Positions 1,685-62,629 of a DNA stretch of 64,000 nucleotides are shown here, piece after piece (within the stretch, counting starts at the first letter, position 1; each line of letters opens with the position of its first letter). The translations under genes were made by a program, and so were the position numbers. This DNA is from Caulobacter sp. AP07 (GTDB lineage: Bacteria; Pseudomonadota; Alphaproteobacteria; Caulobacterales; Caulobacteraceae): NCBI RefSeq assembly GCF_000281955.1, contig NZ_AKKF01000167.1:1-64000 (forward strand), written 5' to 3'. The notes under the pieces are model-generated. The model saw nothing but the letters and a program-made list of their open reading frames with translations. It was not told the origin of the DNA and made no database searches.

Positions 1685-1702
1685 ATACCCTTGGGGGAGG
1701 AC
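1685..1702. promoter_or_regulatory. Cluster motif copy 1: ACCC-N5-GGAG
   Basis: The sequence ATACCCTTGGGGGAGGAC is an imperfect inverted repeat with a CCC half and a G-rich half around a 5-bp centre. It lies 91 bp upstream of the ferredoxin reductase start (1594, minus strand), in the divergent spacer with the Rieske gene at 1845. It is one of 14 similar sites in the window. Binding by one of the LuxR-type regulators is inferred. Confidence 0.55.
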
Positions 1703-1724
1703 GTCGCCGAGGCGACGGGAGCCT

Positions 1725-1743
1725 GTACCCGCAGGAGGGTATC
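1725..1743. promoter_or_regulatory. Cluster motif copy 2: ACCC-N5-AGGGTA
   Basis: GTACCCGCAGGAGGGTATC is one of the most symmetric copies, with TACCC and GGGTA arms. It lies about 100 bp upstream of the VanA-like oxygenase start at 1845. Together with copy 1 it gives each divergent gene its own site. Confidence 0.6.
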
Positions 1744-1844
1744 GCGCCGTGCGCGTCGCGAGCGCTTTCTGGTCGGCGATGGCGAACGTGACCCTAGACG
1801 AGCGCGACGCCCGTTCGACCTAGTTCTCCGGGGAGATGCTTGCG

Positions 1845-2867
1845 ATGACCTACCTCTACAATGCTTGGTATGCGGCGGCGTGGAGCCACGAGATCAGCGA
1901 GACGCTCTTTTCCCGGACGTTCCTGGACATTCCGGTGGTTCTCTACCGCAACGCCGAAGCCAAGGTCATCGCGCTGCACGACCGGTGTCCCCATCGGTTC
2001 GCGCCGCTGTCGATGGGCCAGATCGTCGAGGGGCGGCTGCGCTGCGGCTACCACGGCCTGTCCTTCGACGAGGCCGGCGCCTGCGTCCACAGCCTGATGT
2101 CGACGGTGGCGCCCAAGGCGGCCAAGGTGCGGGCCTTCGCCGTTCACGAGCAGGACAAGATGGTCTGGATCTGGATGGGCGACGCCGCGCCGGGCGACAC
2201 CGCCGCCATTCCCCGTCTGCCCCACCACACCGACGAGGTCATGAGCTGCAACTTTGGCCTGACGACCGCCAAGGCCGACTACCGTCTCCTGTCCGACAAC
2301 CTGATGGATCTGACCCACACCGCCCTGCTCCATCCGGCGTTCGGCGGGCTGGACTACATCGCCAAGACCAAGAGCTGGGAGGAGGACGGCCAGGTGGTTT
2401 CCGACCACGTGGTCGAGGATATGCCGGCCTTCTTCGCGCCCGGCACCGACTTGAAGGTGCACAACCGCGACACCATCCGCTGGATCGCGCCCGCGACCCA
2501 TATCCTCGAGAGCCGCATCACCCCGATGGATGACGCCAATTGGGAGACCTATATTCCCTCGGCGCACATCCTGACGCCGGAGTCGCGCAAGACCACGCAC
2601 TACTTCTGGAGCTCGGCCAGCCACAAGGATTCGGGGGTTTCGGATGAGGCGATGATGGCCACCCTGATCCAGGCCTTCGACTTCGAGGACAAGCCGATGG
2701 TCGAGGCCGTCCAGCAGCGCATGGGCGATGCGGACCTTTGGGATCTCAATCCCGTCCTGCTGCCGGCCGACGCCGGCGGCGTGCGCGTGCGTCGGCGACT
2801 GGCGGCTCTGATCGAGTCCGAGCAGGCCGCCCGCGCCGCCGAAGCCGTTGCGACGCCCGCGGGCTGA
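1845..2867 (+). CDS. Rieske [2Fe-2S] oxygenase, vanillate O-demethylase (VanA)-like
   Basis: This is a 340-residue oxygenase component that hydroxylates a methyl group, so that it leaves as formaldehyde, or an aromatic carbon. The Rieske cluster ligands are C48, H50, C67 and H70 (CPHR...CGYH). The catalytic iron site shows as NLMDLTH followed by LLHPAFGG, the pattern of the VanA/dicamba O-demethylase group. The ATG at 1845 is preferred to the one at 1836 because GGGGAG at 1830-1835 is correctly spaced only for 1845, and because the family begins with an N-x-WY-x-AAW motif. The formaldehyde operon begins 157 bp downstream, which supports a demethylase role. The closest relative in the window is 53344-54402. 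The exact substrate is not visible. Confidence 0.9.
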   Translation: MTYLYNAWYAAAWSHEISETLFSRTFLDIPVVLYRNAEAKVIALHDRCPHRFAPLSMGQIVEGRLRCGYHGLSFDEAGACVHSLMSTVAPKAAKVRAFAVHEQDKMVWIWMGDAAPGDTAAIPRLPHHTDEVMSCNFGLTTAKADYRLLSDNLMDLTHTALLHPAFGGLDYIAKTKSWEEDGQVVSDHVVEDMPAFFAPGTDLKVHNRDTIRWIAPATHILESRITPMDDANWETYIPSAHILTPESRKTTHYFWSSASHKDSGVSDEAMMATLIQAFDFEDKPMVEAVQQRMGDADLWDLNPVLLPADAGGVRVRRRLAALIESEQAARAAEAVATPAG

Positions 2868-2921
2868 GCTGGCGACGACCGCCATCGCCACCACTCCTCG
2901 ACCGCGTCCGGGCCTGAAGGC

Positions 2922-2940
2922 GTCCCCCTATAGGGTGATA
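2922..2940. promoter_or_regulatory. Cluster motif copy 3, upstream of the formaldehyde operon
   Basis: GTCCCCCTATAGGGTGATA fits CCCC-N5-GGGTGAT and sits about 85 bp before the frmA start. Its presence here ties formaldehyde oxidation to the same putative control as the Rieske genes. Confidence 0.6.
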
Positions 2941-3023
2941 TTTCGGCTTGGCGAAAAGGGCGAGGTTCCGATCGCAGTTTCGACCGCGCGCTGCATGCCG
3001 GTCGCCTATGTCGAGGATCACAG

Positions 3024-8118: not shown

Positions 8119-8145
8119 GTTTCTATGGTCGGAAAGGAGTTTTTC

Positions 8146-9653
<1,508 letters not shown>

Positions 9654-9657
<4 letters not shown>

Positions 9658-10118: not shown

Positions 10119-10151
10119 GCGCCGGCCTAACACGGAAACTGCGGACAAGAA

Positions 10152-10165: not shown

Positions 10166-10195
10166 CTCTTTTGTGAGATCGGCAGGACGAGCGGC

Positions 10196-14738: not shown

Positions 14739-14756
14739 GTCCCCTCAGGGGGTGAT
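14739..14756. promoter_or_regulatory. Cluster motif copy 4
   Basis: GTCCCCTCAGGGGGTGAT fits CCCC-N5-GGGTGAT and lies 58 bp upstream of the NTF2-like gene at 14814. It marks the return from the HpaR block to the Rieske-type regulation. Confidence 0.6.
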
Positions 14757-23007: not shown

Positions 23008-23025
23008 ATACCCTTGTGAAGCGAC
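23008..23025. promoter_or_regulatory. Cluster motif copy 5 (degenerate right half)
   Basis: ATACCCTTGTGAAGCGAC keeps ACCC-TTGTG but has AAGCGAC instead of RGGGAC. It lies 70 bp upstream of the Rieske/TonB operon start at 22938, the only plausible position for its promoter. Confidence 0.45.
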
Positions 23026-24620: not shown

Positions 24621-24638
24621 GTCCCCTTGTAGAGGGAC
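24621..24638. promoter_or_regulatory. Cluster motif copy 6
   Basis: GTCCCCTTGTAGAGGGAC is a strong inverted repeat (arms GTCCCC and GGGAC). It lies in the amidase/MFS divergent spacer, 110 bp from the amidase start and 134 bp from the MFS start. It shares its TTGT centre with copy 5. Confidence 0.65.
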
Positions 24639-26965: not shown

Positions 26966-27520
26966 TCAACCTCGCCCCGCGCCTGCGATGAAGCTGGCCA
27001 TCACCAAGCGGCGCAGGCTTGAAGGATCGGCGCTGCTCTCTTGGCTCAGCGTCCCGGCCGCCATCAGCAGAGCATCGTAGGTTCGCAGCAGCCAGTCGGC
27101 TCCAAGATCGTCCCGAAAGGCTCCGGTCGCCTGGCCACGACGGAAAAAGCCGATCATGCGTGCGCGATAGTCGTCCATGACCGGGTCGGCGGGCGGCATC
27201 TGTCCCGGACGAGGCCGCGGCGCGCCCTCCTCGATCCAGAAACTGTAGAGCGCCGCGTCCTCCAGGAAATCGAGGGTCAGGGCGGCCAGAACCTGTTGTG
27301 GATCGCCATCGGCCAGGCCCGCCGCGTCGAGCGCGCGCGCGGTGGCCAGATGGGCTTCCTGGCGCAGCAAGTCCAACAAGGCCTCGCGCGAGGCGGCTAC
27401 CCGATAGAGGGTCCTGCGGCTGATGCCGGCGTGCGGGGCTAGGTCCTGATAGGTCGCGCCGGGATGGTCGACCAGGGCCCGGGCCAAACCACGGATCAAT
27501 TCTGTTCGCTTTCGCGTCAC
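26966..27520 (-). CDS. TetR-family transcriptional regulator
   Basis: This 184-residue protein has an N-terminal TetR helix-turn-helix (ATYQDLAPHAGISRRTLYRVAASREALLDLL at about 22-52) and a variable helical ligand domain. The start is GTG at 27520; the nearby ATG at 27525 runs straight into a stop. It is divergent from the Rieske gene at 27659, and a perfect palindrome lies between them, so it most likely represses that gene and itself. The ligand is unknown, probably the Rieske substrate or product. Confidence 0.88.
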   Translation of the reverse strand: MTRKRTELIRGLARALVDHPGATYQDLAPHAGISRRTLYRVAASREALLDLLRQEAHLATARALDAAGLADGDPQQVLAALTLDFLEDAALYSFWIEEGAPRPRPGQMPPADPVMDDYRARMIGFFRRGQATGAFRDDLGADWLLRTYDALLMAAGTLSQESSADPSSLRRLVMASFIAGAGRG

Positions 27521-30992: not shown

Positions 30993-31012
30993 TATCCCCT
31001 TGGAGGGTGATG
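30993..31012. promoter_or_regulatory. Cluster motif copy 7
   Basis: TATCCCCTTGGAGGGTGATG fits CCCC-N5-GGGTGAT and lies 60 bp upstream of the hydrolase operon start and about 185 bp before the LuxR gene at 31195. It may serve both, allowing the regulator to control its own gene. Confidence 0.65.
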
Positions 31013-31061: not shown

Positions 31062-31194
31062 CCCCGGCCGCAGCCGGGGCGCGAGTAACGCTCCAAAGCT
31101 CGGTTCGCCCAAGCTTTGATCATCCGGGATGGGGATTTGCGGTCCTGAGCGCACGCCCCGCCCGCCGCTTGACACCCCCCCCGCCGGGACTAGC

Positions 31195-32088
31195 ATGCGT
31201 GAAAAATATATGCGCCGCTTGAGTACGGCGTGTGACGAAAGCGGGGAAACGTTGCGTATTCACGGCACCAGTGAGTTGGATCGACTGGGCGACCTGACGG
31301 CCTCGATCGGGTCCGAAAACTTCGCCATGACCTATTACGACGTGTTTCGCGATCTGCTGAACATCGAGGAATGCACGGTCTTTTCGTTCCAGCGCTCCAA
31401 CAAGCCCAAGCCCCTGATCGCCGAAGGCCGCAACGAGCGCCCCTATTCGACGCGTCAGCTGGCTCAGGACTATGTCTCTGGCGGCTATCTCGAAGACCCC
31501 AACGTGATATCCCGACATGTGTCGAGCAACGGCGCCTATGTCATCCAGAGCGAAGAGATCAAGAACGAGCTTTTTCGTCGTCACTATTACGAGTTTCCGG
31601 CCATCGCGCAGGAGATGGTGATGAAGGGCGACGCCGGCGGCACGCTCTATTACGCCAGCTTCTACCGCAAGGCCGACGCCCGGCAATTTGATCTGCAGGA
31701 AATGCAGACCATCAACGCCCTGTCGGGCTTCATCACCAAGGCGCTGCATCGCCACAGCGAGCTTTTCTCGCCCTGCAACGGCGATGGCTTCAGTCTGGCC
31801 ACGCACGGCGCGACCTCCGCGGAGGTTCGCGACCGCACCCTGGAGCACCTGTCCAACGTCCTGTTCAACGGGCCCCATCGCCTCAGCAAGCGCGAGGCCG
31901 AGATCTGCGCCGGCATCGTGCTGGGCTATTCCACCCTGGCCATCAGCCTCAATTGCGCGATCTCCCCCAACACCGTGGCCACGCACCGCAAGCGCGCCTA
32001 CGCCAAGATGGGCATTTCCAGCCAGAACGAGCTTTTCACACGCTATTTCTCCAGCGTGCGCGAGTTTCAGTCCCGCCTGGCCCACTGA
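31195..32088 (+). CDS. LuxR-type (GerE helix-turn-helix) transcriptional regulator, copy 1
   Basis: This 297-residue regulator has an N-terminal sensor-like domain (about 25-190, no recognised signature) and a C-terminal LuxR helix-turn-helix at about 230-285. The helix-turn-helix starts RLSKREAEICAGIVLGY and contains the recognition segment NTVATHRKRAYAK. The second regulator (48498-49307) has the same NTVATHRKRAYAK stretch and matching flanks (ISSQ-x-ELF), although the sensor halves differ strongly. Both could therefore bind the same DNA motif but respond to different ligands. ATG 31195 is chosen; 31210 is an alternative. No phosphoacceptor domain is present, so direct ligand sensing is inferred. 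Confidence 0.88.
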   Translation: MREKYMRRLSTACDESGETLRIHGTSELDRLGDLTASIGSENFAMTYYDVFRDLLNIEECTVFSFQRSNKPKPLIAEGRNERPYSTRQLAQDYVSGGYLEDPNVISRHVSSNGAYVIQSEEIKNELFRRHYYEFPAIAQEMVMKGDAGGTLYYASFYRKADARQFDLQEMQTINALSGFITKALHRHSELFSPCNGDGFSLATHGATSAEVRDRTLEHLSNVLFNGPHRLSKREAEICAGIVLGYSTLAISLNCAISPNTVATHRKRAYAKMGISSQNELFTRYFSSVREFQSRLAH

Positions 32089-33703: not shown

Positions 33704-33721
33704 GTCACTCCGCAGGGGTAC
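33704..33721. promoter_or_regulatory. Cluster motif copy 8 (reads on the minus strand)
   Basis: On the minus strand the sequence GTACCCCTGCGGAGTGAC fits CCCC-N5-AGTGAC. It lies about 95 bp before the DAO gene at 33813, in the 195-bp spacer after the permease. Confidence 0.5.
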
Positions 33722-35233: not shown

Positions 35234-37522
35234 CTAGGCGGCGGCCGACAGCCTGACGGGCGCGGACTTGTAGGCCGGGGTGCCGCTGCGTTCGTCGCGA
35301 TCGTCCAGCCCCACCAGGGCGTTGGTCTCCGGATAATAGGCCGCCACGCAGCCGCGCGGCAGGTCCATCGCCACGGCGACCATGCCGCGGACCGCTCGCT
35401 GCCCGCTCGGCGCGAACGCGGCGACCAGATCGATGAGGTCGCCGGCCTTCAGGCCGCGCGCCGCCAAGTCCGCCGGATTGACGAAGACCACGTCGCGCCG
35501 GCCGAACACGCCGCGATAGCGGTCGTCATTGCCGTAGATGGTGGTGTTGTACTGGTCGTGACTGCGCAAGGTGGTCAGGAGCAGGACGTCGCCCTGGCCG
35601 CGGCGCGGATCGGCGGCGGGCGCCAGCGGCAGGAAATGGGCCTTGCCGCTGGCCGTCTTCCAAACCCGCTCGGACGGGCCGACCGGCAGGCGAAAGCCGC
35701 CCGGTACGCGGATCCTGTCATTGTAGCCGGAAAAGAGCTCGGGCAGCACCGCTTCGATCAGCGCGCGGATGCGGTCGTAGTCGGCCACCAGGTCTTCCCA
35801 AGGCACCGGGTCGTCCGGCCCGAAGACGGCGCGCGCCATGCCGGCCACGATCGCCGGCTCCGACAACAGGGTGTCGGCGGCCGGGGTGTTGAGGCCTCGC
35901 GAGGCATGGACCATCGACATGGAGTCCTCGACGGTCACCGCCTGGCGCCCGCCGGCCTGAAGATCGATCTCGGTGCGGCCCAGGCAGGGCAGCAGCAGGC
36001 TGGCGCGCCCCTGCAGCAGATGGGTGCGATTGAGCTTGGTGGCGACATGGACGCTCAGCTCGAGTCGTCGCATGGCCGCGCAGGTCCGGCCCGGATCGGG
36101 CGCGGCGATGGCGAAATTGCCGCCCAGGCCGATGAACACCTTGGCCCGTCCCTGCTCCATCGCCTCGATGGCTTCGACGACCGTATGGCCGTGACGCCGC
36201 GGCGAGACGATGCCGAACACGCGGTCCATCGCCGCCAGGAACGCCTCGGTGGGCTTTTCCCAGACCCCGACGGTCCGATCGCCCTGCACGTTCGAATGGC
36301 CTCTGAGCGGACAGATCCCCGCGCCCGGCCGGCCGATATTGCCGCGCAGCAGCAGCAGGTTGGCCAACTGATGGATCGACGAGGAGGCGTTGCGGTGCTG
36401 GGTCAGGCCCATGCCATAACAGAGGATGGCGGCCTTGGACCGCGCATAGATCGTGGCGATCTCCTCGATGCGGGCGCGCTCGAGCCCGCATCTCTGCTCG
36501 ATCGCCGGCCATTCCAGACCCGCCAGATGGGCAGCCAGCGCCTCCAGGCCCAGGGTGTGCTCGGCGATGAAGCCATGGTCGAGCACGGGCTCGGCCCCGG
36601 ATCGGCGCGCTTCCTCGTCCCGGGTCACCAGGCATTTCATGACGCCCTCGACCAGGGCCGCGTCGCCGCCGATCGCGACCTGGTAGTAGTGCGAGGCGAT
36701 CGGCGTGGCGGTCAGGGTCGCCATCTCCTTGGGATCCTGGGGCGAGGCGAAGCGCTCCAGCGCCCGTTCCCGCAGGGGATTGAACACCAGGATCGCCGCG
36801 CCGCGCCGGGCGGCCTCGCGCAGGGTCGCCATCATCCTGGGATGGTTGGTCCCGGGATTGTGGCCAAAGCACAGGATCAGGTCGGCGTGGTCGAAATCCT
36901 CCAGGGTGACCGACCCCTTGCCCAATCCGATGGAGTCGGGCAGCGCCACGCTGGTCGGCTCGTGGCACATGTTGGAGCAATCGGGGAAGTTGTTGGTCCC
37001 GAACTTGCGGCCCAGCAGCTGGTAGAGAAAGGCCGCCTCGTTGGACGCCCGGCCCGAGGCGTAGAACTCGGCCTGGTCGGGGCTCTCCAGAGCGCGCAGC
37101 GCGCCGCCGATCTGATCGAAGGCGTCGGCCCACGAAATCGGCAGATAGCGGTCGCTGGCGTGATCATAGGCCATGGGATGGGTCAGGCGCCCGACGTCCT
37201 CCAGGTCGTGATCGTTCCAGCTCAGCAGTTCGGTGACGCTATGACGGGCGAAGAAGTCCGGTCTCGCGCGCTTGCTGGTGGCCTCCCACGCCACGGCCTT
37301 GGCGCCGTTCTCGCAAAATTCGAACGAGGCGGTGTGCTTGGGATCGGGCCAGGCGCAGCCGGGACAGTCAAAGCCGTCGGGCTTGTTGGCGTGCAGAAGA
37401 CTGCGTCCGCCTTCGACGACGGCCTTCTGGTCGGCCAGGGCTCGTCCCACCGCCTTGAGCGCGCCCCAGCCGCCGGCGGGACCATGATAGGGCCGAACCC
37501 CTTCTATGGTGTCATCGGACAT
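35234..37522 (-). CDS. fdhF: FdhF/YdeP-family molybdopterin oxidoreductase, probable formate dehydrogenase
   Basis: This 762-residue enzyme has an N-terminal cysteine set (C53, C56, C70) that could hold an iron-sulfur cluster. Molybdopterin-binding blocks include FGHNPGTNHPRMM and GMGLTQHRNAS. C186 in DCSNMCHEPTSVAL aligns with the selenocysteine/cysteine of formate dehydrogenases (U/C-H-x-PSV). YdeP-group members have uncertain substrates, but the adjoining fdhD and moeA genes and the upstream formaldehyde pathway favour formate oxidation to CO2. Its ATG follows the fdhD stop by one base. This would be the last step of C1 removal. Confidence 0.88.
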   Translation of the reverse strand: MSDDTIEGVRPYHGPAGGWGALKAVGRALADQKAVVEGGRSLLHANKPDGFDCPGCAWPDPKHTASFEFCENGAKAVAWEATSKRARPDFFARHSVTELLSWNDHDLEDVGRLTHPMAYDHASDRYLPISWADAFDQIGGALRALESPDQAEFYASGRASNEAAFLYQLLGRKFGTNNFPDCSNMCHEPTSVALPDSIGLGKGSVTLEDFDHADLILCFGHNPGTNHPRMMATLREAARRGAAILVFNPLRERALERFASPQDPKEMATLTATPIASHYYQVAIGGDAALVEGVMKCLVTRDEEARRSGAEPVLDHGFIAEHTLGLEALAAHLAGLEWPAIEQRCGLERARIEEIATIYARSKAAILCYGMGLTQHRNASSSIHQLANLLLLRGNIGRPGAGICPLRGHSNVQGDRTVGVWEKPTEAFLAAMDRVFGIVSPRRHGHTVVEAIEAMEQGRAKVFIGLGGNFAIAAPDPGRTCAAMRRLELSVHVATKLNRTHLLQGRASLLLPCLGRTEIDLQAGGRQAVTVEDSMSMVHASRGLNTPAADTLLSEPAIVAGMARAVFGPDDPVPWEDLVADYDRIRALIEAVLPELFSGYNDRIRVPGGFRLPVGPSERVWKTASGKAHFLPLAPAADPRRGQGDVLLLTTLRSHDQYNTTIYGNDDRYRGVFGRRDVVFVNPADLAARGLKAGDLIDLVAAFAPSGQRAVRGMVAVAMDLPRGCVAAYYPETNALVGLDDRDERSGTPAYKSAPVRLSAAA

Positions 37523-37523
37523 G

Positions 37524-38345
37524 TCAGAGCTCCGTGCAGAGGGCGGCGGCCGGATCGAACCGTTCGGCGCCGCTGAAAACCGTGTGGCCATCGGCCCGGG
37601 CCAGGGCCACCAAGGTGACGCCGGCGGCTTGCGCCTTGCTGATGGCCAGATCCGTGGGCGCCGAGATGGCGACGATCATCGGGCAGTCGAGACGAGCGAC
37701 CTTCTCGACCATCTCGAACGAGCAGCGGCTGGTGACGACGATGAAGCCCAGGCTCGGGTCAATCGCCGCCCTCATCAGCGCGCCGCCAAGCTTATCCAGG
37801 GCGTTGTGGCGGCCGACGTCTTCGCGCACCGGCCCCAGGGCCCCGTCGGCGAAGGCGAACGCCGCCGCATGGGTCGCACGGGTCAGGGCGCCCAAGGGCT
37901 GTCGGCGCTCCAAGGCTTCCAGCGCGCGTTGGATCGCCTGATGGGTGAAGACCTGGCCCGCTGTGACGAAGGGCAGCGGCCGGATGGCGTCGGCTAGGCG
38001 CTGCACGCCGCAAAGACCGCAACTGGAGCGCCCTTCGAGCCCCCGCGGCCGCGCCTTGGTCCGCGGGGCGGCCGCATGCAGACGGATATCGACCATCAGG
38101 CCGTCCGGATGGACAGAGATCTCGGCGCCGGCGATGGCCCCATAGGACGCCACGCCCTCGGTGATGGTGAACCCGATCGCCAGGTCCTCGACATCGGCCG
38201 GCGAGGCCATCAGCACCGTGTGAGGGCGACGGTCGAACGACAGGGCGATCGCCGTTTCTTGGGGCGTGGCCCGATCAATGGTCGCCGGCGACCCGGCGAC
38301 CCGCCACAACTGGCCCGAACGACGTGTCGACAGATCCTGGTGCAC
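37524..38345 (-). CDS. fdhD: Formate dehydrogenase sulfurtransferase/accessory protein
   Basis: This 273-residue protein of the FdhD family transfers sulfur from a cysteine desulfurase to the molybdenum cofactor of formate dehydrogenase. The catalytic cysteine loop is CGLCG (C109, C112), and the C-terminal FDxxSRCSFEM-type block reads VTSRCSFEMVEKVARLDCPM. The start is GTG at 38345. It lies one base upstream of fdhF and 106 bp after moeA, in a minus-strand operon. Its presence supports FdhF being a true Mo-sulfido formate dehydrogenase. Confidence 0.95.
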   Translation of the reverse strand: MHQDLSTRRSGQLWRVAGSPATIDRATPQETAIALSFDRRPHTVLMASPADVEDLAIGFTITEGVASYGAIAGAEISVHPDGLMVDIRLHAAAPRTKARPRGLEGRSSCGLCGVQRLADAIRPLPFVTAGQVFTHQAIQRALEALERRQPLGALTRATHAAAFAFADGALGPVREDVGRHNALDKLGGALMRAAIDPSLGFIVVTSRCSFEMVEKVARLDCPMIVAISAPTDLAISKAQAAGVTLVALARADGHTVFSGAERFDPAAALCTEL

Positions 38346-38451
38346 GAGGACGCGTTTCCCTTCTGGACCGCGGGGCGGTCCGCCTTATGGCCCCGGCCGC
38401 CGCGTCGCGGCCGGCCGGGGCCGGTCAGATTTCCACCGGCCGGCGACACCC

Positions 38452-39735
38452 TCAGAGGGGCAAGCACATCGCCGGATCGGCCGTGCGATCCGCGCCGTCC
38501 TGGCGCAGGTGGACCAGCGCGTTGGCCCGCGTCAGGGCCGCGTGTCCCGAGGCCTCCTGCTTGTCGATGATCACCGTGCCGTCCGCCCGGCGCTCGGCCA
38601 GCAGAAAGAGATCGCGGTCCGCGGCGGCGGCTGGGACCAGCACGCTGTCGTCCTCGCTCCAGTCCAGGGCCGCCCGGGCGTCCCGCCCGGCCAGCGCCGC
38701 GATGGCCGGGGCGAGCAGCACGCGGGCGGCGACCAGGGCGGCCGTGGGATTGCCGGGAAGCCCCACGATCAGGCGGTCGGCGAGCACGGCGGCCCAGACC
38801 GGCTTGCCCGGCCGCATGCGCACGCCTTCGAACAAGAGGGTCGCGCCGGCCTGGCCCGCCGCCGATCGGCCCAGGTCCCGCTCGCTGCGCGAGGCGCCGC
38901 CGACGATCACCAGGACATCGGCGTGGGTCGCTTGACGCCGGACGGCGTCCAGCAGGATCTCGCCGACGTCCTTGCAATAGGTCCGGTCGACGACCTCTCC
39001 GCCCCAGGCCTGGATCAGGGCGGCCACCCCGTACGAGACGCTGTCGGGCGTCCGCCGGGCGGCATCGGACGGCGGGGCAATCTCGTCGCCGGTGACCAGG
39101 AGGCGAACGCGAGGCCGGCGCACGACCGTCAAGGTCGTCGCCTCGGCGGCGGCGGCGGCCATCATCGCCCCGGGACCGAGAACGGATCCGACCGGCAACA
39201 ACGGCGCGCCGGCGGAGAAGTCCGAACCGGCCGGTCGCACATGCGCCTTGTCGCCCGGCCAGGCCACCAGGCGCACCTCGCCGCCGGCGGCGGAGGTCGC
39301 CTCATCGACGATGACCCGGTCGGCGCGATCGGGCAGGGTCGCGCCCGTCGTGACGCGCACGGCCTGCCCCGGCTGGAGGCGCCCGACGAAGGGCGCGCCC
39401 GGATAGGCCGCGCCAACGAGCTTTAGCCCGTCACGCATGGCCAAGAGATCCGACGAGGCGATGGCGTATCCGTCCATGGCCGAGAGCGCCGCGGCCGGCC
39501 GCGCCCGCGCGGCGAAGACCGGCTGCGCCAAGACGCGCCCATGGCCGGCCTCCAGGCCGACGGCCTCTGCCTCCAGCGGCGAGACGGCGCCCAGCAGGCG
39601 CCCAAGCGCCTCGTCGTAGCTGGGCAAGCCCGGCGCGGCGCAGGTCAGAGGCTCGCCGGCCAAGTCGCGCCGAACGGCTCCCCCGGTCACGAGGGATGTC
39701 TTCGCGCCGACCGCGTGATTCTGTTTAGGCTTCAC
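38452..39735 (-). CDS. moeA: Molybdopterin molybdenumtransferase
   Basis: This protein of about 427 residues inserts molybdate into adenylated molybdopterin. It shows the MoeA blocks SYDEALGRLL, SAMDGYAI, VRVTTGATLP, RVRLLVTGDEI, the MPT-binding VIVGGAS-x-x-ERDL region and the LPGNPTA motif. The start is uncertain: GTG 39735 overlaps the end of the DUF2218 gene by 11 bp, while GTG 39690 is an alternative; neither has a strong ribosome site. A second, housekeeping moeA probably exists elsewhere, making this an operon-dedicated copy for formate dehydrogenase. Confidence 0.9.
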   Translation of the reverse strand: MKPKQNHAVGAKTSLVTGGAVRRDLAGEPLTCAAPGLPSYDEALGRLLGAVSPLEAEAVGLEAGHGRVLAQPVFAARARPAAALSAMDGYAIASSDLLAMRDGLKLVGAAYPGAPFVGRLQPGQAVRVTTGATLPDRADRVIVDEATSAAGGEVRLVAWPGDKAHVRPAGSDFSAGAPLLPVGSVLGPGAMMAAAAAEATTLTVVRRPRVRLLVTGDEIAPPSDAARRTPDSVSYGVAALIQAWGGEVVDRTYCKDVGEILLDAVRRQATHADVLVIVGGASRSERDLGRSAAGQAGATLLFEGVRMRPGKPVWAAVLADRLIVGLPGNPTAALVAARVLLAPAIAALAGRDARAALDWSEDDSVLVPAAAADRDLFLLAERRADGTVIIDKQEASGHAALTRANALVHLRQDGADRTADPAMCLPL

Positions 39736-40012
39736 GTCGCCAAGGGATCTGAAGGTCGGGTTCACGATGGGCGAAGCGCTGGATGTGATCGGCGACGATG
39801 GTTTCAAGACCCTCGAAGCCCTCGGCCGCGCCCGTGACCTTGACGATCAGCGCATCGTCTTCGGCGTCCAGGCGGCAGTTGCTGTCCCCAAAATCGATGT
39901 CGGCGCGCTGGGGCGTGAAGTCGACCTTGAAATGATGGCCCCAGTGCTTGGCCAGTTGCTGGAGGTAGCGCGAGCCGTTGACCGTCGGGATGCGGGCGAT
40001 GGAACTGGGCAT
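39725..40012 (-). CDS. DUF2218-family protein
   Basis: This 95-residue protein matches the DUF2218 pattern: an N-terminal NGSRYLQQLAKHWGHHF, central acidic strands and a C-terminal ETIVADHIQRFAHRE helix. Function is unknown; members often occur beside metal or redox genes. It is the first gene of the operon that continues with moeA (overlapping), fdhD and fdhF. It could assist cofactor handling, but this is only context. The upstream spacer with two cluster motifs is shared with the divergent gene at 40223. Confidence 0.75.
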   Translation of the reverse strand: MPSSIARIPTVNGSRYLQQLAKHWGHHFKVDFTPQRADIDFGDSNCRLDAEDDALIVKVTGAAEGFEGLETIVADHIQRFAHREPDLQIPWRREA

Positions 40013-40077: not shown

Positions 40078-40097
40078 CATACCCCTGACGAGGGACC
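40078..40097. promoter_or_regulatory. Cluster motif copy 9
   Basis: CATACCCCTGACGAGGGACC fits CCCC-N5-AGGGAC and is 66 bp from the DUF2218/formate dehydrogenase operon start. It links formate oxidation to the Rieske regulon. Confidence 0.6.
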
Positions 40098-40118: not shown

Positions 40119-40136
40119 TCACCCTTGGGGGTGATG
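40119..40136. promoter_or_regulatory. Cluster motif copy 10 (perfect TCACCC/GGGTGA arms)
   Basis: TCACCCTTGGGGGTGATG has perfectly complementary six-base arms around TTGG. It lies 87 bp before the divergent gene at 40223 and 107 bp from the DUF2218 gene. Two sites in one divergent spacer mirror the arrangement at 1685-1743. Confidence 0.65.
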
Positions 40137-45761: not shown

Positions 45762-45772
45762 CGCGCGCATCC

Positions 45773-48300: not shown

Positions 48301-48359
48301 GGTTCCGCCTCTGCCTCGGCACGTTGGCCAAAGCATCCCGCGCCCGGCTTCGGCTCGCC

Positions 48360-48378
48360 ATACCCTCGCTGGGGTAGC
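48360..48378. promoter_or_regulatory. Cluster motif copy 11
   Basis: ATACCCTCGCTGGGGTAGC has TACCC and GGGTA arms and lies 60 bp upstream of the Rieske gene start (48300, minus strand). It is one of the best copies. Confidence 0.7.
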
Positions 48379-48497: not shown

Positions 48498-49307
48498 CTA
48501 GGTTTCCCAACCGGCGAAGAAGATCCCGAAAAGTTCGGTCTGGCTGGAGATGTTGAGCTTGGCGTAGGCGCGCTTGCGGTGCGTGGCCACGGTGTTGGCG
48601 GCGATGCCGAGCAGTTCGGCGACCGCCTCGGCGCGATAACCGACGACGATCGCGGCGCAGACGTCCGCCTCGCGCGGCGTGAGGCCGGCCTGGTGCTGGA
48701 GCAGGATCCGGCGCAGCGCCCCCAGTTTTCGCTCGCGCATGAGGCGCAGGTTGGAACCGCCCGCATCGACCGTGGCGGCATGTCTGCGCACCAGGCTGAC
48801 CAGGAGCGGCGAGATCGACAGCAAGGCCTGGACCTCCTCGGGACGATAGCCGGCGGCGGTCGAGGAGAGGCCGACATAGAGCGTGCTGGAGGCCTGCCGC
48901 CGGAAAATGGAGATCTCCTCGGCCGCGTCCATGTCGTCGAAATATTTCAGGCGGATCTTGCCCTCGCGGTCGCCCGCGTGCTGCAGGAGCCAGTCGACCG
49001 AACCCAGCGCGCCGCGGCTGTGAAGTTTGAACACGTCGTCGTCGGCGTAGTCCTCCAGCGCATAGTCGCGCGAGATCTTCCGCGCCCGCGCGGTCAGGTC
49101 GTCGTCGAGACCCTCGGTCAGCAGGACCCTTCCGCCGCCCTTGTCCTCGAGCTCGATGGCGAAGAGCACGGAGAGGGAGGCGTAGTGGCCGCAGAACGCA
49201 TAGAGCCGTCGCTCGAACGTCTCGGAGCCGAGGGTGTCGATCAGACCCGCCAGGCGCACAAGGGCGTCCTCGCCGGCCGGTGATTGATCGACGAGATCGG
49301 GGCGCAT
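48498..49307 (-). CDS. LuxR-type transcriptional regulator, copy 2
   Basis: This 269-residue regulator has a divergent N-terminal sensor-like domain and a C-terminal LuxR helix-turn-helix at about 208-262. The helix-turn-helix begins LTPREADVCAAIVVGYRAE and has the recognition segment NTVATHRKRAYAK, identical to copy 1 at 31195-32088. It lies between a Rieske gene and a TonB receptor gene, all on the minus strand, each downstream gene having its own motif-bearing promoter. No copy of the motif was found directly upstream of this gene. The ligand is unknown; no receiver domain is present. Confidence 0.88.
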   Translation of the reverse strand: MRPDLVDQSPAGEDALVRLAGLIDTLGSETFERRLYAFCGHYASLSVLFAIELEDKGGGRVLLTEGLDDDLTARARKISRDYALEDYADDDVFKLHSRGALGSVDWLLQHAGDREGKIRLKYFDDMDAAEEISIFRRQASSTLYVGLSSTAAGYRPEEVQALLSISPLLVSLVRRHAATVDAGGSNLRLMRERKLGALRRILLQHQAGLTPREADVCAAIVVGYRAEAVAELLGIAANTVATHRKRAYAKLNISSQTELFGIFFAGWET

Positions 49308-49470: not shown

Positions 49471-51783
49471 CTAGAACTTGACTCCGGCCTGGAGGCCAAA
49501 GAGGCGGCGGTCGCTGTAGACCCGAGAGTACCACGCGGTTCCCGTAAAGAAACCGAACACGTGGTACTTCTGGTCGGTTAGATTGTTGACGTAGGCGTCC
49601 AGGTGCCACTGCCTTGGCCCCGCCGGCGCGGTCAGGGAGATGCGCGCGTTGCCGAGCACGAGGCTGCCGTCGCCGGTGTAGCTGAAGTTATAGGCGTCGA
49701 AATAGACCTTACTGCGATAGTTCCAGTCGGTGCTCAGGCGGATGTTGTATCCGTTGCTCAGGTCGAAATCGTAGGCGGCCGACGTCGAGGCGGTCCATTT
49801 GGGCGCATAGGCCAAGCGGTGGCCGGCCAAACTGATGGGCTGACCCGCAAAGAGCGTGTGATACTCGTCGAAACGCGCGTCCGTGTAGCCGAGCGAGCCC
49901 GACAGGCGCAGATGCGCCACAACGGCCGCCTCGGCCTCGACCTCGAAACCCTTGACCGTGGAGGATCCGGCGTTGCTGAGCTTGACCCCGGCCCCGCTGG
50001 CGCCCGTCGACAGGATCTGCTGGTCCGACAACTCGTAATAGAACCCCGAGGAGTTGAGGCGAAGCCGGTTGTCGAAGAACTCCAGCTTCGCGCCCGCCTC
50101 ATAGGAGCGAAGAATTTCGGGACGAACCGTGGCGATGGCGTCGGGCGTGGAGGCAAACAGGTTGTAGCCCCCGGACCGGAAGCCCTCGGCGGCCTTGACG
50201 TAAAGCAGGGCGTCGTCGGACGGCTTGTAGTTCAGCGTCAGGTCCCAGGTCGCCCGGTTCCAGGTGTTGGTCTCGTGTTGGCCGAACCGCACGTCGACCG
50301 CCGGATCGACGACGAATGGCGGATGGGCGATGTCAAAGCCGATCAGGGTGTCGTCGGTGAAGTCATAGCCACCGCTGAAGACATCGAGGCCGACGATGTC
50401 GACTTTCTTGCGCTCGGAGGAATAGCGAAGGCCGCCGATGACGGAAAACCGCTCGTCGATCTTGAACGTCACGTTGGTGAAGGCCGCCAAGGTCTGGGTC
50501 TTCTGGTCGGCGTCGTCGCGAAGGATATTGTCTCGCGGCGGCCCAAACAGCACGCTGCCGGTGGAGGTCGGAGCCTTGGCGCGGTCATACTGAGCGAAAA
50601 GGCCGAAGACGCCGCTCAGGCGGCGTCCGGCGGGGCTGGCGGCGCGCACTTCCTGACTGATCTGCCAGGCGTGCAGGTCCTGCCGCGTACCGAAGAAGTC
50701 GGTCGCGTTGCCATCGTCGTTGGTGCGGATCTTGTAGTCGATCTTTTGGTAGCCGGTGATCGCCGTCAGGCTCCAGTCGCCGGCGTCCTGGTCGATGCGC
50801 AGATTGAGCCCGGAATTGCTGTATTTCTCGAAGCTCTGGGTCTCGTCGTTGACCTCGCCGGGCGCCTCGTAGGTCTTGGGGAGGCTGGAGCCGTTGCAGT
50901 TGGCGTAGGGCGTGTTGGTCGGGTCGAAGCGGGCCGGATCGCAAATGTTCTGGACGAAGCCGCCATGGTACAGGGTCGCGTCGCCATTGCTGCGCATCCC
51001 AAACAGCTTCAGGTTGACGCGGGTGGCGTCGCTCGGGGTCCATTCGAATTGGGCGCGGCCGGCGAGCATCCGGTTCTCGCCGAGGTCCTGACCGTTGAAG
51101 ACGTTGCGGACGTAGGCGTCGCGGTTCTCGTAGCGAAGGTCGAACCGCGCGGCGAGCGTGTCCGAAATGGGCGTGTTGAGGACCCCCTCGAGGGTGCGCT
51201 TGTTGTATTCACCGGTGATCAGGTCGGCGTTGACGTAGCCGCCCAATTGCTTTTGAGGACGGGCCGAATAATAGGCCACGGCGCCGCCCGTGGTGTTCTT
51301 GCCAAACAGCGTGCCTTGCGGACCGCGCAGCACCTCGACGCGATCCAGGTCGAACAGCTGAGAGCCGATGCCGAAGCTGTAGGGCTGATAGACGTCGTCG
51401 ATATAGATCGCCACCGGACTGGCGCCGGCCTGCGAAAAGTCGGTCGCGCCCAGGCCGCGGATCGCAAAACGGGTGTTGCCGCCGGCATAGCCGCTCGTGG
51501 CGAAGAGATTGGGCGTGATGCGGGCCAGTTGCACCGCGTCGGTGATGCCCTGCCGGGCCAACTGCTCGCCGGCGACCGCGGTGACGGCGGTCGAGACGTC
51601 CTGGACATTGGTCGCGCGTCGCGTCGCGGTGACGATGATTTCGTCCAGGGCGATCTTGTCCCCGTCGCGCGCCGCCGCCGCGGGCTGGGCGACCTCCTTG
51701 GTCTCTTGCGCGTGGGCGCCGCTACAGGCGAGCACCAGCGCCGTTGTCGACAATAGCGTGGTGGTGAAGCTCATCGGTCGCAT
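49471..51783 (-). CDS. TonB-dependent outer-membrane receptor
   Basis: This 770-residue receptor has a signal peptide (TTTLLSTTALVLACSGAHA), the TonB-box region DEIIVTATRRATNVQDVSTAV, a plug with VEVLRGPQGTLFGKNTTGG, and a beta-barrel closing with an aromatic C terminus (LFGLQAGVKF). It is similar in layout to 19381-21708 and likely imports an aromatic or other non-iron substrate. ATG 51783 has AAGGGGAGAG upstream. The promoter region carries a cluster motif about 105 bp before the start, so it is probably induced together with the Rieske genes. Confidence 0.93.
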   Translation of the reverse strand: MRPMSFTTTLLSTTALVLACSGAHAQETKEVAQPAAAARDGDKIALDEIIVTATRRATNVQDVSTAVTAVAGEQLARQGITDAVQLARITPNLFATSGYAGGNTRFAIRGLGATDFSQAGASPVAIYIDDVYQPYSFGIGSQLFDLDRVEVLRGPQGTLFGKNTTGGAVAYYSARPQKQLGGYVNADLITGEYNKRTLEGVLNTPISDTLAARFDLRYENRDAYVRNVFNGQDLGENRMLAGRAQFEWTPSDATRVNLKLFGMRSNGDATLYHGGFVQNICDPARFDPTNTPYANCNGSSLPKTYEAPGEVNDETQSFEKYSNSGLNLRIDQDAGDWSLTAITGYQKIDYKIRTNDDGNATDFFGTRQDLHAWQISQEVRAASPAGRRLSGVFGLFAQYDRAKAPTSTGSVLFGPPRDNILRDDADQKTQTLAAFTNVTFKIDERFSVIGGLRYSSERKKVDIVGLDVFSGGYDFTDDTLIGFDIAHPPFVVDPAVDVRFGQHETNTWNRATWDLTLNYKPSDDALLYVKAAEGFRSGGYNLFASTPDAIATVRPEILRSYEAGAKLEFFDNRLRLNSSGFYYELSDQQILSTGASGAGVKLSNAGSSTVKGFEVEAEAAVVAHLRLSGSLGYTDARFDEYHTLFAGQPISLAGHRLAYAPKWTASTSAAYDFDLSNGYNIRLSTDWNYRSKVYFDAYNFSYTGDGSLVLGNARISLTAPAGPRQWHLDAYVNNLTDQKYHVFGFFTGTAWYSRVYSDRRLFGLQAGVKF

Positions 51784-52114
51784 TGAAGTCTCTCCCCTTG
51801 AGCGCCGCCACGACCTGGACCTAATGCCCGACCTGGTTTTTTGGCGAACGCCGATACGCAGTTCACTGGTAGGAGAGGAGACGGCCCATACCCTCAACGG
51901 GTTACGGCTCAACCGCCTCTTGGCAATAGAATAGGCGCCCGTCGCCGCGCCCGCTTCCGATCAGGCACGACGCCTTCTCCGCAAGACCTTTGGTCGACGA
52001 CCCGTTTGGCGCTCAAACCGTATTGGCGCGACCTAATCATCGGCCTGATGATTTAGCGACGTGGCATAGTGTCAGGGTCAATACCTGCCTAGTCTGGCGG
52101 AGGGCCAGTCTTGG
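51784..52114. other. 331-bp upstream region of the TonB receptor
   Basis: This stretch separates the TonB receptor start from the end of the MFS operon on the same strand. It carries one cluster motif (51888-51905) and no recognisable gene. The part 51910-52080 is less GC-rich and may include the promoter and the end of the upstream transcript. Confidence 0.5.
51888..51905. promoter_or_regulatory. Cluster motif copy 12
   Basis: ATACCCTCAACGGGTTAC fits ACCC-N5-GGGTTA, upstream of the TonB receptor. It shares ATACCCTC with copy 11. Confidence 0.6.
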
Positions 52115-55528: not shown

Positions 55529-55860
55529 GGGAAACCTCCAACCCAGTGCGCTCGGCGCCCCTTTCCAAAATGCCCTCGCGCCACCGCTCGGCGCCGCAAA
55601 GGCTTGGCGGCAGAGCGGCTCGGCGCACGGTGATCGGAGCTGTGGCGATTTTGGGTTCTGGGGTCGCCCGGGCCTATACCCGCAAAGGGGGAGACGCCCT
55701 CGCCGGTCGCGTCCCCGCCTGAGGTTATGGTCCGCGGCGTCCGCGGCCGCCTAGGGTTCAGGCATGACGGTCGTCATGGCGCTCGGCCCGCGCGGGCGGG
55801 TCTTGGTCGACATGCGCGCCGACCCGGGCAAGCCGGTGGGCCAGGATTTGAGAGGCGTCG
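55529..55860. other. 332-bp divergent spacer
   Basis: This spacer lies between the Rieske operon (minus) and the beta-helix-like gene (plus). It contains cluster motif copy 13 and no convincing gene. A short open frame at 55764 is not coding-like. Confidence 0.5.
55676..55695. promoter_or_regulatory. Cluster motif copy 13
   Basis: ATACCCGCAAAGGGGGAGAC (with preceding T) fits ACCC-N5-GGGGGA and is about 150 bp upstream of the Rieske/Rieske/MFS operon and 165 bp before the divergent gene at 55861. It is the most distant copy from a start codon. Confidence 0.55.
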
Positions 55861-60745: not shown

Positions 60746-60915
60746 ACGCCGAGGCCTACCGAACGTCCATAGAGGGGCGGCTCGCCATGGTCGCTCGCCC
60801 AACCATGCCAGGCACAGACATTCCTCTGGTCGGTTCGAGGTTGAATTCGTCGCTGGCAACCTGACTGCAAGCGGTCTTTCAGGTCGCCACCGCCAGGGAT
60901 TGTCGGCCCCGGTGA

Positions 60916-60960
60916 ATTCCCGCCCTTGTCGCGGGCACGGGGTTCCCCAAGGGCGGGAAT
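60916..60960. repeat. Long palindromic element (13-bp perfect stem)
   Basis: ATTCCCGCCCTTG (60916-60928) pairs with CAAGGGCGGGAAT (60948-60960) around a 19-base loop. It lies between convergent genes ending at 60745 and 61002. It may be a terminator or a member of a dispersed REP-like family of the type ATTCCCGC...GCGGGAAT. The rest of the 256-bp spacer shows nothing more. Confidence 0.65.
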
Positions 60961-61001
60961 GACGGCTGAATTGGGGAATCACACCTGAATGTCGATACCT
61001 C

Positions 61002-61280
61002 CTAGACCTCGCCGTCGCAGACCAGGATCTGTTCGCTGCCGATCACGAAACCCGATTCCTCGATATGACCGCGAACGGCCGGATCGTAGATCATGTCGTG
61101 CACCGCGCGCGGCGTGGTCGTCCGCACGGCGTAGACCGCCGCCTGCTCGCCGATCACGGGGTGGCGAAAGACATCCTCGATGCCCGCCGCGGCGCGGGCC
61201 TGGCTGTGCTGGTCGAAGCGCTCCGCCCAATGGGCGAAGGGCTTGGACAGACTCAGTTTGACCACCAGCAAGAATTTCAT
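61002..61280 (-). CDS. Small hypothetical protein (DUF3764-like)
   Basis: This 92-residue protein starts at ATG 61280 with GGAG eight bases upstream. It has an N-terminal strand (MKFLLVVKLSLSKPFAHW), a central AAGIEDVFRHPVIG and a C-terminal strand (GFVIGSEQILVCDGE), a ferredoxin-like alpha-beta pattern. It resembles the DUF3764 group, with moderate certainty. It follows the MFS gene by 108 bp on the same strand and may be co-transcribed. No function is known. Confidence 0.65.
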   Translation of the reverse strand: MKFLLVVKLSLSKPFAHWAERFDQHSQARAAAGIEDVFRHPVIGEQAAVYAVRTTTPRAVHDMIYDPAVRGHIEESGFVIGSEQILVCDGEV

Positions 61281-61388
61281 CCGTAGCTCCAAGAGCAGAT
61301 CCCCCGCGCGGGGGTCATAGGGTTCAGGATTTGGCCGCTGGCGCCCAACCGACGCCATCCCGCGGCCGTTGGCCGATCGCCGCGCCGT

Positions 61389-62555
61389 CTATCCGGCGAC
61401 GGCGGTCTTCGCCAATCTCTGGACATAGACGAACAGCAGGCTGGCGATCGCCGAGCCGACGAAGACCGCGGCGCCGACCACCTCGATGCCGGCGACCCGC
61501 TCGAGATAGCCGCCCAGGACGGGACTGACGGCGCCGGTGAAATAGAAGATCCCGCCGACATAGGACACGCCCCGGCCGCTGGTGTCCAAGGCCGCCGCCG
61601 CGCCGAACACATAGGGCAGGACGAAGTAGAGCGCCGCGAGGTTGGCGCAGGTCGCCACCCGAAAGCCCGCCGCCGAGGGATGCGAGGCCAGCATCGAAAT
61701 CCCGATCGTCATGATGGCCAGGGCCGCCAGGACCGGAGCGAGGCGCCCGAACCTGACGCCGATCAGGCCGCCGATGGCGCTGCCAGCGATGGCCGCGACG
61801 ATGGCCAGGGAGATGGCGCCGTCGACCTGGGCGACCGACAGTCCGGCCTGGCCGCCGATAATGCCGTAGAAGGCCCAAAGGGTTCCGCTGGAGATCCCCA
61901 CGATGAGGGTGATCGCCATCAAGGCCACCAGCGCGGGGCCCACGACGAGCGGTCCGACGGGCGCGCCTACAGCCTGTTCGGGATTGGCGGCGGGGGGGCG
62001 GAGCTTCGGCAGCAGGGCCATGGCGACGCTGAGCGCGAGCAGGGCCAGCAAGATCGCCGCGTAGGGATCGGTCACCGAAACGCCGTGCAGAAGCGGCGCC
62101 AGCCCCACGATCAGGGCCCCGAAGATCAGATTGACGACATTGATGCGGGCGAAGGCCTTGTCGGGGTCGTCAAACCCGGCGACCACTCGGTTGGAGACCA
62201 CCAGGGCGGCCCCCACCCCGGCGCCGGCCAGGCAGCGGGCGATCAGCAACGGGACGAACTGGTGCAGGCCCAGGGTCGCGATCGAGGCGATGATCGCCAG
62301 GCCCATCCCCAGCAGCCCGGTCTTGCGAAATTCCCAATGGGGCGCGAACCGGACGATCAGGGCCGAGGTGGCGGCCAGCGCGGCCATCTCGGCGGAAACC
62401 AGCAATCCGGCCAGCGGTGCGGAGAGACTGGCGTTGGTGATCAGATAGCCGATCAGGATTGGCTGCATCCACCACGTGGCGTTGGCGGCGCAAGCGCCAG
62501 CCGCGGCGGCGGCGAATCGGCGCATGTCCCCGCGCCCTCGCACCATGTTGTTCAA
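61389..62555 (-). CDS. Major facilitator superfamily transporter, paralogue of 24772-25971
   Basis: This 388-residue MFS protein has about 12 segments. Shared features with the other copy include CAAN-x-TWWMQPI near the start, SN-R-VVAGF-x-DPDKAFARI, and the C-terminal GRGVSYVGGIFYFTGAVSPVLGG matching its GKAAGYVSSAFFYATALGPFVGG. It starts at TTG 62555, which has AGGAGG upstream; ATG 62546 follows three codons later. A cluster motif is 55 bp before the start. It probably carries an aromatic acid or related metabolite; the direction is unknown. Confidence 0.88.
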   Translation of the reverse strand: MNNMVRGRGDMRRFAAAAAGACAANATWWMQPILIGYLITNASLSAPLAGLLVSAEMAALAATSALIVRFAPHWEFRKTGLLGMGLAIIASIATLGLHQFVPLLIARCLAGAGVGAALVVSNRVVAGFDDPDKAFARINVVNLIFGALIVGLAPLLHGVSVTDPYAAILLALLALSVAMALLPKLRPPAANPEQAVGAPVGPLVVGPALVALMAITLIVGISSGTLWAFYGIIGGQAGLSVAQVDGAISLAIVAAIAGSAIGGLIGVRFGRLAPVLAALAIMTIGISMLASHPSAAGFRVATCANLAALYFVLPYVFGAAAALDTSGRGVSYVGGIFYFTGAVSPVLGGYLERVAGIEVVGAAVFVGSAIASLLFVYVQRLAKTAVAG

Positions 62556-62609
62556 CGCTTTCCCCTCCTGACGGCCTAAAAACCATGTCAAAAGCGCGAC
62601 TGTCGCAAT

Positions 62610-62629
62610 CTACCCCCAAAAGGGGATAG
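62610..62629. promoter_or_regulatory. Cluster motif copy 14
   Basis: CTACCCCCAAAAGGGGATAG is nearly a perfect palindrome (CTACCCC/GGGGATAG) around AAA. It lies 55 bp before the MFS start and directly after the end of the DAO gene at 62650. Confidence 0.65.

What the first reader, a model, noticed from the sequence alone, without database searches (positions are those of the whole stretch)
1685..62629. A recurrent inverted repeat (A/C)CCC-N5-(A/G)GGG marks nearly all Rieske, TonB, MFS, formaldehyde and formate units
Fourteen copies were found by eye: 1685, 1725, 2922, 14739, 23008, 24621, 30993, 33704, 40078, 40119, 48360, 51888, 55676 and 62610. Almost all lie in spacers 35-165 bp before start codons, and extended arms often read TACCC...GGGTA or CCCC...GGGTGAT. 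None was noticed in front of the HpaR block, the Fur-controlled pair, the nuclease, the caspase cassette or the TetR-controlled Rieske gene. This looks like an undescribed regulon joining substrate import, demethylation and C1 oxidation.
Basis: partly seen in the sequence, partly recalled or inferred. Interest (0 to 1): 0.9.

Follow-up and report, generated by a model that had tools for sequence, protein, structure and literature searches.

The report
Shared operator of a catabolic regulon
A short palindromic DNA site, repeated in front of genes for importing and demethylating aromatic-type compounds and for oxidising the formaldehyde and formate released, looks like the docking site of a family of LuxR-type regulators that tie these genes into one regulon.

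Summary
The fourteen sites are real and far above chance, but the consensus needs correcting: it is a 16-bp palindrome T(A/C)(A/C)CC-N6-GG(G/T)(G/T)A, not (A/C)CCC-N5-(A/G)GGG. The exact form occurs 10 times in the window at spacer 6 and 0-2 times at other spacers. Of 54 exact matches in the genome, 12 lie on the window's contig and 11 on C205, a parallel cluster with homologous genes; these two contigs hold the four LuxR-family proteins of this kind. In other Proteobacteria the motif is enriched around LuxR homologues with recognition helix NTVATHRKRAYAK or close to it (26 sites, mean 2.2 at other spacers) and not around homologues with altered helices (6, mean 3.2). Fifteen congeners show no such excess; 14 lack the LuxR. 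The LuxR fold resembles VqsR and quorum-sensing receptors. Best reading: LuxR-type solo receptors activating a multi-operon catabolic regulon. Binding, inducer and direction of control are untested. Searches of a partial paper library found no description.

The parts
1686..1701 (.). operator-like site TACCCTTGGGGGAGGA, divergent promoter ferredoxin reductase / VanA-type Rieske
   Evidence: score 13.1 with combined matrix; about 100 and 143 bp from the two start codons
1726..1741 (.). operator site TACCCGCAGGAGGGTA, same divergent promoter
   Evidence: exact motif, 17.0
2923..2938 (.). operator site before glutathione-dependent formaldehyde dehydrogenase
   Evidence: exact motif, 17.7; 94 bp before ATG 3024
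14740..14755 (.). operator site before orf 14814-15245, followed by DAO-type oxidoreductase 15349-16806
   Evidence: exact motif, 18.0; sequence read
23009..23024 (.). weak operator-like site before Rieske oxygenase 21763-22938 and TonB receptor 19381-21741
   Evidence: 10.2, 8.4 with the other-species matrix
24622..24637 (.). operator site between amidase and MFS (divergent)
   Evidence: 14.8
27398..27413 (.). doubtful site before Rieske oxygenase 27464-28768
   Evidence: one mismatch to TMCCC-N6-GGGKA but matrix score only 5.4-7.3
30995..31010 (.). operator site before LuxR1 and divergent orf369
   Evidence: exact motif, 20.5
33705..33720 (.). operator site before DAO-type oxidoreductase
   Evidence: 13.3; 100 bp before ATG 33813
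40080..40095 (.). operator site, divergent promoter of formate dehydrogenase operon / orf263
   Evidence: 13.5; 8.5 with the other-species matrix
40119..40134 (.). second operator site of the same promoter
   Evidence: exact motif, 14.1; only 7.4 with the C205 matrix
48361..48376 (.). operator site before Rieske oxygenase 47116-48336
   Evidence: exact motif, 17.7
51889..51904 (.). operator site before TonB receptor 49471-51783
   Evidence: exact motif, 20.5
55677..55692 (.). operator site between Rieske 54443-55528 and orf404
   Evidence: exact motif, 14.4
   Evidence: exact motif, 16.6
62611..62626 (.). operator site before MFS 61389-62546
   Evidence: exact motif, 18.2
31129..32088 (+). LuxR1: LuxR-family regulator, GerE helix-turn-helix at residues 251-302; proposed regulator
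48498..49307 (-). LuxR2: LuxR-family regulator, GerE at residues 209-259; N-terminal domain with autoinducer-receptor fold; proposed regulator
341..1594 (-). ferredoxin reductase
   Evidence: PF07992, PF14759; 69% identical to C205:33517-34761
1836..2867 (+). VanA-type Rieske oxygenase (demethylase-like)
   Evidence: PF19112, PF00355
3024..4133 (+). S-(hydroxymethyl)glutathione dehydrogenase
   Evidence: TIGR02818 above cut-off
35234..40012 (-). formate dehydrogenase operon: DUF2218, MoeA, FdhD, molybdopterin oxidoreductase
   Evidence: that it is one operon is inferred from order and strand
49471..51783 (-). TonB-dependent receptor
   Evidence: PF00593
61389..62546 (-). MFS transporter
   Evidence: PF07690

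Best explanation
The palindrome TMMCC-N6-GGKKA is the operator of a clade of LuxR-type solo regulators (autoinducer-receptor-like ligand domain plus GerE helix-turn-helix with recognition helix NT(V/I)xTHRKRAYAK). Two are encoded in the window and two on contig C205. A dimer binds the two half-sites, whose centres are 11 bp apart, upstream of each operon. On binding a pathway compound it most likely activates uptake (TonB, MFS), Rieske demethylation, amine oxidase-like steps, and the C1 tail (glutathione-dependent formaldehyde dehydrogenase, formate dehydrogenase), and it probably controls its own gene LuxR1. Shown by sequence: the motif, its placement and its co-distribution with the helix. 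Inferred: that the LuxR proteins bind it, that the effect is activation, and that the inducer is a substrate or intermediate.
For: Spacer 6 only: window 10, C205 11, against 0-2 and 0-1 at other spacers. Matrices trained without the window recover the sites, all or nearly all intergenic. Density at score 12 or more with the other-species matrix: 16.1 per 100 kb on C167, 10.9 on C205, 1.5 in 392 kb of the same genome. 23 of 54 exact sites lie on the two contigs with the four LuxR genes. Seventeen loci with the helix in named genomes hold 24 sites at spacer 6 (mean 1.9 elsewhere), in 14 of 17 loci; 11 loci with other helices hold 3 (mean 2.1). With the plasmid and same-family loci added: 18 helix-bearing loci 26 sites (mean 2.2 elsewhere), 20 loci without the helix 6 sites (mean 3.2). 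Own genome 33 oriented hits against 0-12 in 15 congeners, 14 of them without the LuxR. In 8 of 12 other genomes at least two TACCC-N6-GGTGA sites lie on the contig of the LuxR locus. Footprint in Rhizobiales. Proteins encoded next to sites elsewhere: Rieske, aldehyde dehydrogenases, aminotransferase, binding proteins, FdhD and others.
Against: No binding or expression data. LuxR2 and one of the two C205 LuxR genes have no site directly in front. Three of 17 helix-bearing loci have no exact site in the DNA held, and 6 of 22 sites checked in other species fall inside called ORFs. Several other-species loci are close relatives, so they are not 17 independent events. Of 12 genomes searched with TACCC-N6-GGTGA, 2 had one hit at the LuxR locus and 2 none that I could place there. 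Three of four plasmid homologues with altered helices still have one exact site each (L077, L078, L080), that of L077 about 95 bp before its LuxR gene. The motif form was refined partly on the window and C205, so P values on those contigs flatter it.
Confidence: 0.8

Rival explanations
1. The sites are the operator of a different regulator that travels with the same catabolic clusters, for example a CsoR/FrmR-type formaldehyde repressor (G/C-tract operators, recalled) or a TetR or MarR protein.
For: Operators of CsoR/RcnR/FrmR proteins also contain TACC..GGTA ends and C/G runs (recalled), and formaldehyde is a likely product here.
Against: The only CsoR-family (PF02583) gene found in the genome is on contig C21, on neither cluster. 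The motif excess follows the LuxR recognition helix across genera and is not seen near LuxR homologues with altered helices. The middle bases carry little information, unlike a continuous G-tract. TetR and MarR candidates were not tested one by one.
Confidence: 0.12
2. The regulators are the LuxR proteins but they respond to cell density or foreign N-acyl-homoserine lactones rather than to the growth substrate, so the regulon is a quorum or eavesdropping response.
For: The N-terminal domain has the fold of QscR, TraR and VqsR. The genome has one autoinducer-synthase family (PF00765) match, on contig C26.
Against: That synthase is on neither cluster contig. Most of the proteins next to sites in other species look catabolic or transport-related (17 of 20 scanned had a family match). 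The best sequence match to the ligand domain is VqsR, recalled not to bind acyl-homoserine lactones.
Confidence: 0.15
3. The palindromes are not operators but terminators, mobile repeats or chance inverted repeats in GC-rich DNA.
For: GC-rich short inverted repeats are common at 67.6% GC.
Against: Only spacer 6 is enriched, there is little information outside the 16 bp, sites lie upstream of starts, and the reversed-arm control occurs 25 times against 54 genome-wide.
Confidence: 0.02

Closest known systems
VqsR of Pseudomonas aeruginosa (LuxR-type orphan regulator)
   Same: Best profile match for the N-terminal domain (5xhx, E 1.4e-12) and LuxR-type regulator; its reported box TCGCC-N8-GGCGA (recalled, paper not held) has a half-site of the same form T..CC.
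   Different: TCGCC-N8-GGCGA is not enriched in the window or on C205; the spacer here is 6. Genes here are catabolic operons near the regulators; VqsR acts on quorum-sensing genes such as qscR (passages of PMC4211393 and PMC4176358).
AHL-binding LuxR receptors (TraR, QscR, SdiA, RhlR)
   Same: Two-domain fold; Foldseek E down to 1.2e-8.
   Different: The genome's one autoinducer-synthase match is on another contig; the operator is a 16-bp TMMCC-N6-GGKKA palindrome and not the 20-bp lux box (recalled, not searched for).
NarL/FixJ response regulators
   Same: GerE helix-turn-helix; NarL heptamers TACYYMT in inverted 7-2-7 arrangement (recalled) have the same TACCC..GGGTA look.
   Different: No receiver domain found in either window protein.
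HpaR-controlled homoprotocatechuate operon
   Same: Lies inside the window (8-15 kb); in Gemmobacter a LuxR of this clade sits beside an hpa operon.
   Different: The hpa genes of the window have no strong site in front, so they may stay under the MarR-family (HpaR-like) regulator at 9654-10148.

Membership tests
LuxR-type solo with autoinducer-receptor fold (VqsR-like) | C-terminal GerE helix-turn-helix | tested here: met
   PF00196 above cut-off in LuxR1 and LuxR2 and in the two C205 proteins
LuxR-type solo with autoinducer-receptor fold (VqsR-like) | N-terminal domain with the autoinducer-binding fold | tested here: met
   LuxR2 model pLDDT 85.8; QscR, TraR-type and VqsR structures top the PDB fold matches. 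TM-scores on the query are modest (about 0.4-0.5), perhaps because domain orientation differs. Only LuxR2 was modelled.
LuxR-type solo with autoinducer-receptor fold (VqsR-like) | no linked LuxI synthase | tested here: met
   the genome's only PF00765 match is on contig C26, not C167 or C205; a functional pairing at a distance is not excluded
VqsR itself | box TCGCC-N8-GGCGA (recalled) | tested here: not met
   2 in the window and 3 on C205 at spacer 8, within the 0-4 and 0-9 seen at other spacers
NarL/FixJ response regulator | receiver domain | tested here: not met
   only GerE (plus a sub-threshold sigma-70 r4 match in LuxR2) found by Pfam
FrmR/CsoR regulon | CsoR-family gene with the clusters | tested here: not met
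   single PF02583 gene, on contig C21
LuxR-type solo with autoinducer-receptor fold (VqsR-like) | ligand bound by the N-terminal domain | not testable with these tools
   needs binding or induction experiments

The most novel reading that the evidence does not exclude
A proteobacterial clade of quorum-sensing-receptor-like LuxR solos has been recruited as substrate sensors of aromatic or amine catabolism. It uses one exchangeable operator, TMMCC-N6-GGKKA, so that separately located islands (homoprotocatechuate-linked and homogentisate-linked in this genome) and their C1-disposal modules are wired into one regulon, with several paralogous receptors reading the same site for different inducers.
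Probability: 0.5. Interest if true: 0.7.

Novelty: new variant of a known kind. Interest (0 to 1): 0.55.

Why it matters
It gives a concrete consensus and a defined regulator clade with which operons of uncharacterised catabolic islands can be grouped in several groups of Proteobacteria. It predicts that four paralogous receptors in one cell share an operator, which makes inducer cross-talk directly testable. It also suggests that the quorum-sensing receptor fold is used for nutrient sensing, and that formaldehyde and formate disposal is co-ordered with demethylation by the same site.

Tried and rejected
The literal string (A/C)CCC-N5-(A/G)GGG was tested and is a poor description (16 matches, 6 of them at 5 of the 14 listed sites). 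Terminator, repeat and chance readings were rejected by spacer scans, reversed-arm controls and placement. The excess at spacer 5 (8 intergenic hits) is overlap: 7 of the 8 are spacer-6 sites read one base short. A formaldehyde-sensing CsoR/FrmR repressor was considered and disfavoured. The recalled VqsR box TCGCC-N8-GGCGA was searched and is not enriched. Plasmid homologues with other helices (L077-L080) gave no site or one site each. Palindromes of the CCCCCATAGGGGG and TACCCGATCCCGGGTA kinds outside the clusters were set aside as probably other regulators; the latter recurs in congeners without the LuxR. Searches for a matching paper were unsuccessful; only listings were seen, plus short passages of PMC9144697, PMC4211393 and PMC4176358. 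The paper search matches words from their start, so a motif printed inside a longer string would be missed. A guess that the substrate is a benzylisoquinoline-type compound was looked for in the listing and found no support, so no substrate is claimed. The first helix regex matched nothing and was replaced by tblastn.
Full report
What was checked. The 14 coordinates were read from the sequence. Each holds an imperfect inverted repeat of about 16 bp. Scanning two arms with all spacers showed the true symmetry, T(A/C)CCC...GGG(G/T)A with a spacer of 6: 14 intergenic hits with at most one mismatch, against 8 at spacer 5 and 0-3 at the other spacers; 5 further hits at spacer 6 are coding. Seven of the eight at spacer 5 are the same sites read one base short. 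The broader form T(A/C)(A/C)CC-N6-GG(G/T)(G/T)A gives 10 exact hits in the window and 11 on contig C205, and 0-2 or 0-1 at other spacers from 0 to 14.

Is it more than chance? Weight matrices were trained without the window. From C205 (20 sites): 14 intergenic and 0 coding hits at score 10 or more, 0.56 expected in the intergenic share of resampled sequence. From other species (25 sites): 13 and 2, 0.37 expected. The gene calls behind 'intergenic' are my own simple ones, and the resampling is first-order Markov, 20 runs. With the other-species matrix (24 sites), density at score 12 or more is 16.1 per 100 kb on the whole contig C167, 10.9 on C205 and 1.5 in 392 kb from 20 other stretches of the same genome that I picked. 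Genome-wide there are 54 exact sites against 25 for the reversed control; 12 lie on C167 and 11 on C205 (whose list shows 50 of the 54 in contig order and reaches past both contigs). Binomial values are 3e-11 and 1e-9; the pattern was refined partly on these contigs, so they flatter it. In 15 congeners the oriented form TACCC-N6-GGKKA occurs 0-12 times against 33 here (reversed control 19 here), and 22 of the 33 are on the two contigs. Fourteen of those 15 have no match to this LuxR family at E 1e-10; the fifteenth, G168, has one with a different helix.

What the sites stand in front of. Ferredoxin reductase / VanA-type Rieske (1686, 1726), glutathione-dependent formaldehyde dehydrogenase (2923), a small orf followed by a DAO-type oxidoreductase (14740), Rieske-TonB (23009, weak), amidase / MFS (24622), LuxR1 / orf369 (30995), DAO (33705), DUF2218-MoeA-FdhD-molybdopterin oxidoreductase / orf263 (40080, 40119), Rieske (48361), TonB (51889), Rieske / orf404 (55677, 55712), MFS (62611), and beyond the window DAO / histone-deacetylase-like protein (64199, 64256; my gene call for the latter overlaps the two sites, so its start is uncertain). 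No site scoring 10 or more precedes the HpaR block, nuclease, caspase cassette or TonB/PepSY pair. The Rieske gene at 27464 has a doubtful site at 27398.

A second cluster. C205 carries homologues of these genes: ferredoxin reductase 69% identical, VanA-type 58%, DAO 50%, orf369 54%, TonB 38%, Rieske 36%, amidase 28%, LuxR 41%. With at most one mismatch to TMCCC-N6-GGGKA it has 22 hits, 19 of them intergenic by my calls, in front of many of these genes. It adds homogentisate dioxygenase, fumarylacetoacetase, FolD and a formyltransferase-domain protein. So a homoprotocatechuate-linked and a homogentisate-linked island share the operator.

Who binds it? The genome has four LuxR-family proteins of one kind, two on each contig, with nearly identical recognition helices (two further matches are weak). 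Of 28 homologous loci found in named genomes, 17 (L038-L054) have the helix NTVATHRKRAYAK or a near form. They hold 24 exact sites at spacer 6 against a mean of 1.9 at other spacers (highest 5), in 14 of 17 loci. The other 11 (altered helix, e.g. TTVKTHRKRAYAK, or weak matches) hold 3 against 2.1. A Gemmobacter plasmid homologue with the helix, beside an hpa operon, has 2 sites. Homologues with other helices in two genomes of the same family and one of the same genus have none in the 20-40 kb fetched; of four plasmid homologues with other helices three have one each. Put together: 18 helix-bearing loci, 26 sites at spacer 6 against a mean of 2.2; 20 loci without the helix, 6 against a mean of 3.2. 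In whole genomes, TACCC-N6-GGTGA occurs at least twice on the contig of the LuxR locus in 8 of 12 genomes (for example 3 of 4 hits in a Rhizobium, 3 of 7 in a Rhodobacteraceae bacterium), once in 2, and not recognisably in 2. Five Rhizobiales promoters differ widely except at the site, where 14 of 16 bases are invariant; two of the five are close relatives. Among 20 proteins scanned next to sites in other species 17 had a Pfam match, including Rieske oxygenase, aldehyde dehydrogenases, aminotransferase, FAD monooxygenase-type proteins, solute-binding proteins, MFS, FAA hydrolase and FdhD. Of 22 sites examined in 12 loci, 16 lie outside called ORFs.

What kind of protein? The model of LuxR2 (pLDDT 85.8) resembles QscR, VqsR, TraR and other autoinducer receptors. 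The family profile matches the VqsR ligand domain at E 1.4e-12. No receiver domain was found. The genome's one autoinducer-synthase match lies on another contig. VqsR's own box, TCGCC-N8-GGCGA, is recalled from a paper that was not held; its half-site resembles this one, but that box is not enriched here. The LuxR family is rare in the window's taxonomic family (3 of 149 genomes at E 1e-15, own included; the other two have other helices), so the islands are probably acquired (inference).

Conclusion. The motif is a real operator of a real regulon (about 95% sure), most likely bound by these LuxR solos (about 85%), acting mostly as inducer-dependent activators (about 60%).

Noticed in passing
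C205 (L016-L020): A second catabolic island with homogentisate dioxygenase, fumarylacetoacetase, FolD, Rieske, TonB, amidase and two LuxR genes, homologous to the window's island.
   Followed up: partly
G000:C122:91059, C163:13242, L024:4218, L027:1162: Another palindrome, of the CCCCCATAGGGGG kind, recurs between genes outside the two islands; probably a different regulator.
   Followed up: no
G142, G161, G163, G165, G169, G134: TACCCGATCCCGGGTA recurs in congeners that lack the LuxR, so a separate conserved operator with the same arms may exist in the genus.
   Followed up: no
44448-46627: Caspase-domain protein (PF00656, 44448-45857) with an overlapping upstream orf without a Pfam match.
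   Followed up: no
29824-30933: 369-aa protein without Pfam or NCBIfam match, 54% identical to a C205 protein and encoded beside a glyoxalase-family gene in both islands.
   Followed up: partly
8125-14677: Homoprotocatechuate block (HpaE equivalog, 5-carboxymethyl-2-hydroxymuconate isomerase, HpcH/HpaI aldolase) whose ring-cleavage enzyme matches the LigB family and scores far below the HpaD_Fe cut-off.
   Followed up: partly
L077:11870: A Bradyrhizobium plasmid LuxR homologue with an altered helix has an exact motif site about 95 bp before its gene, so the helix-motif link may not be strict.
   Followed up: no
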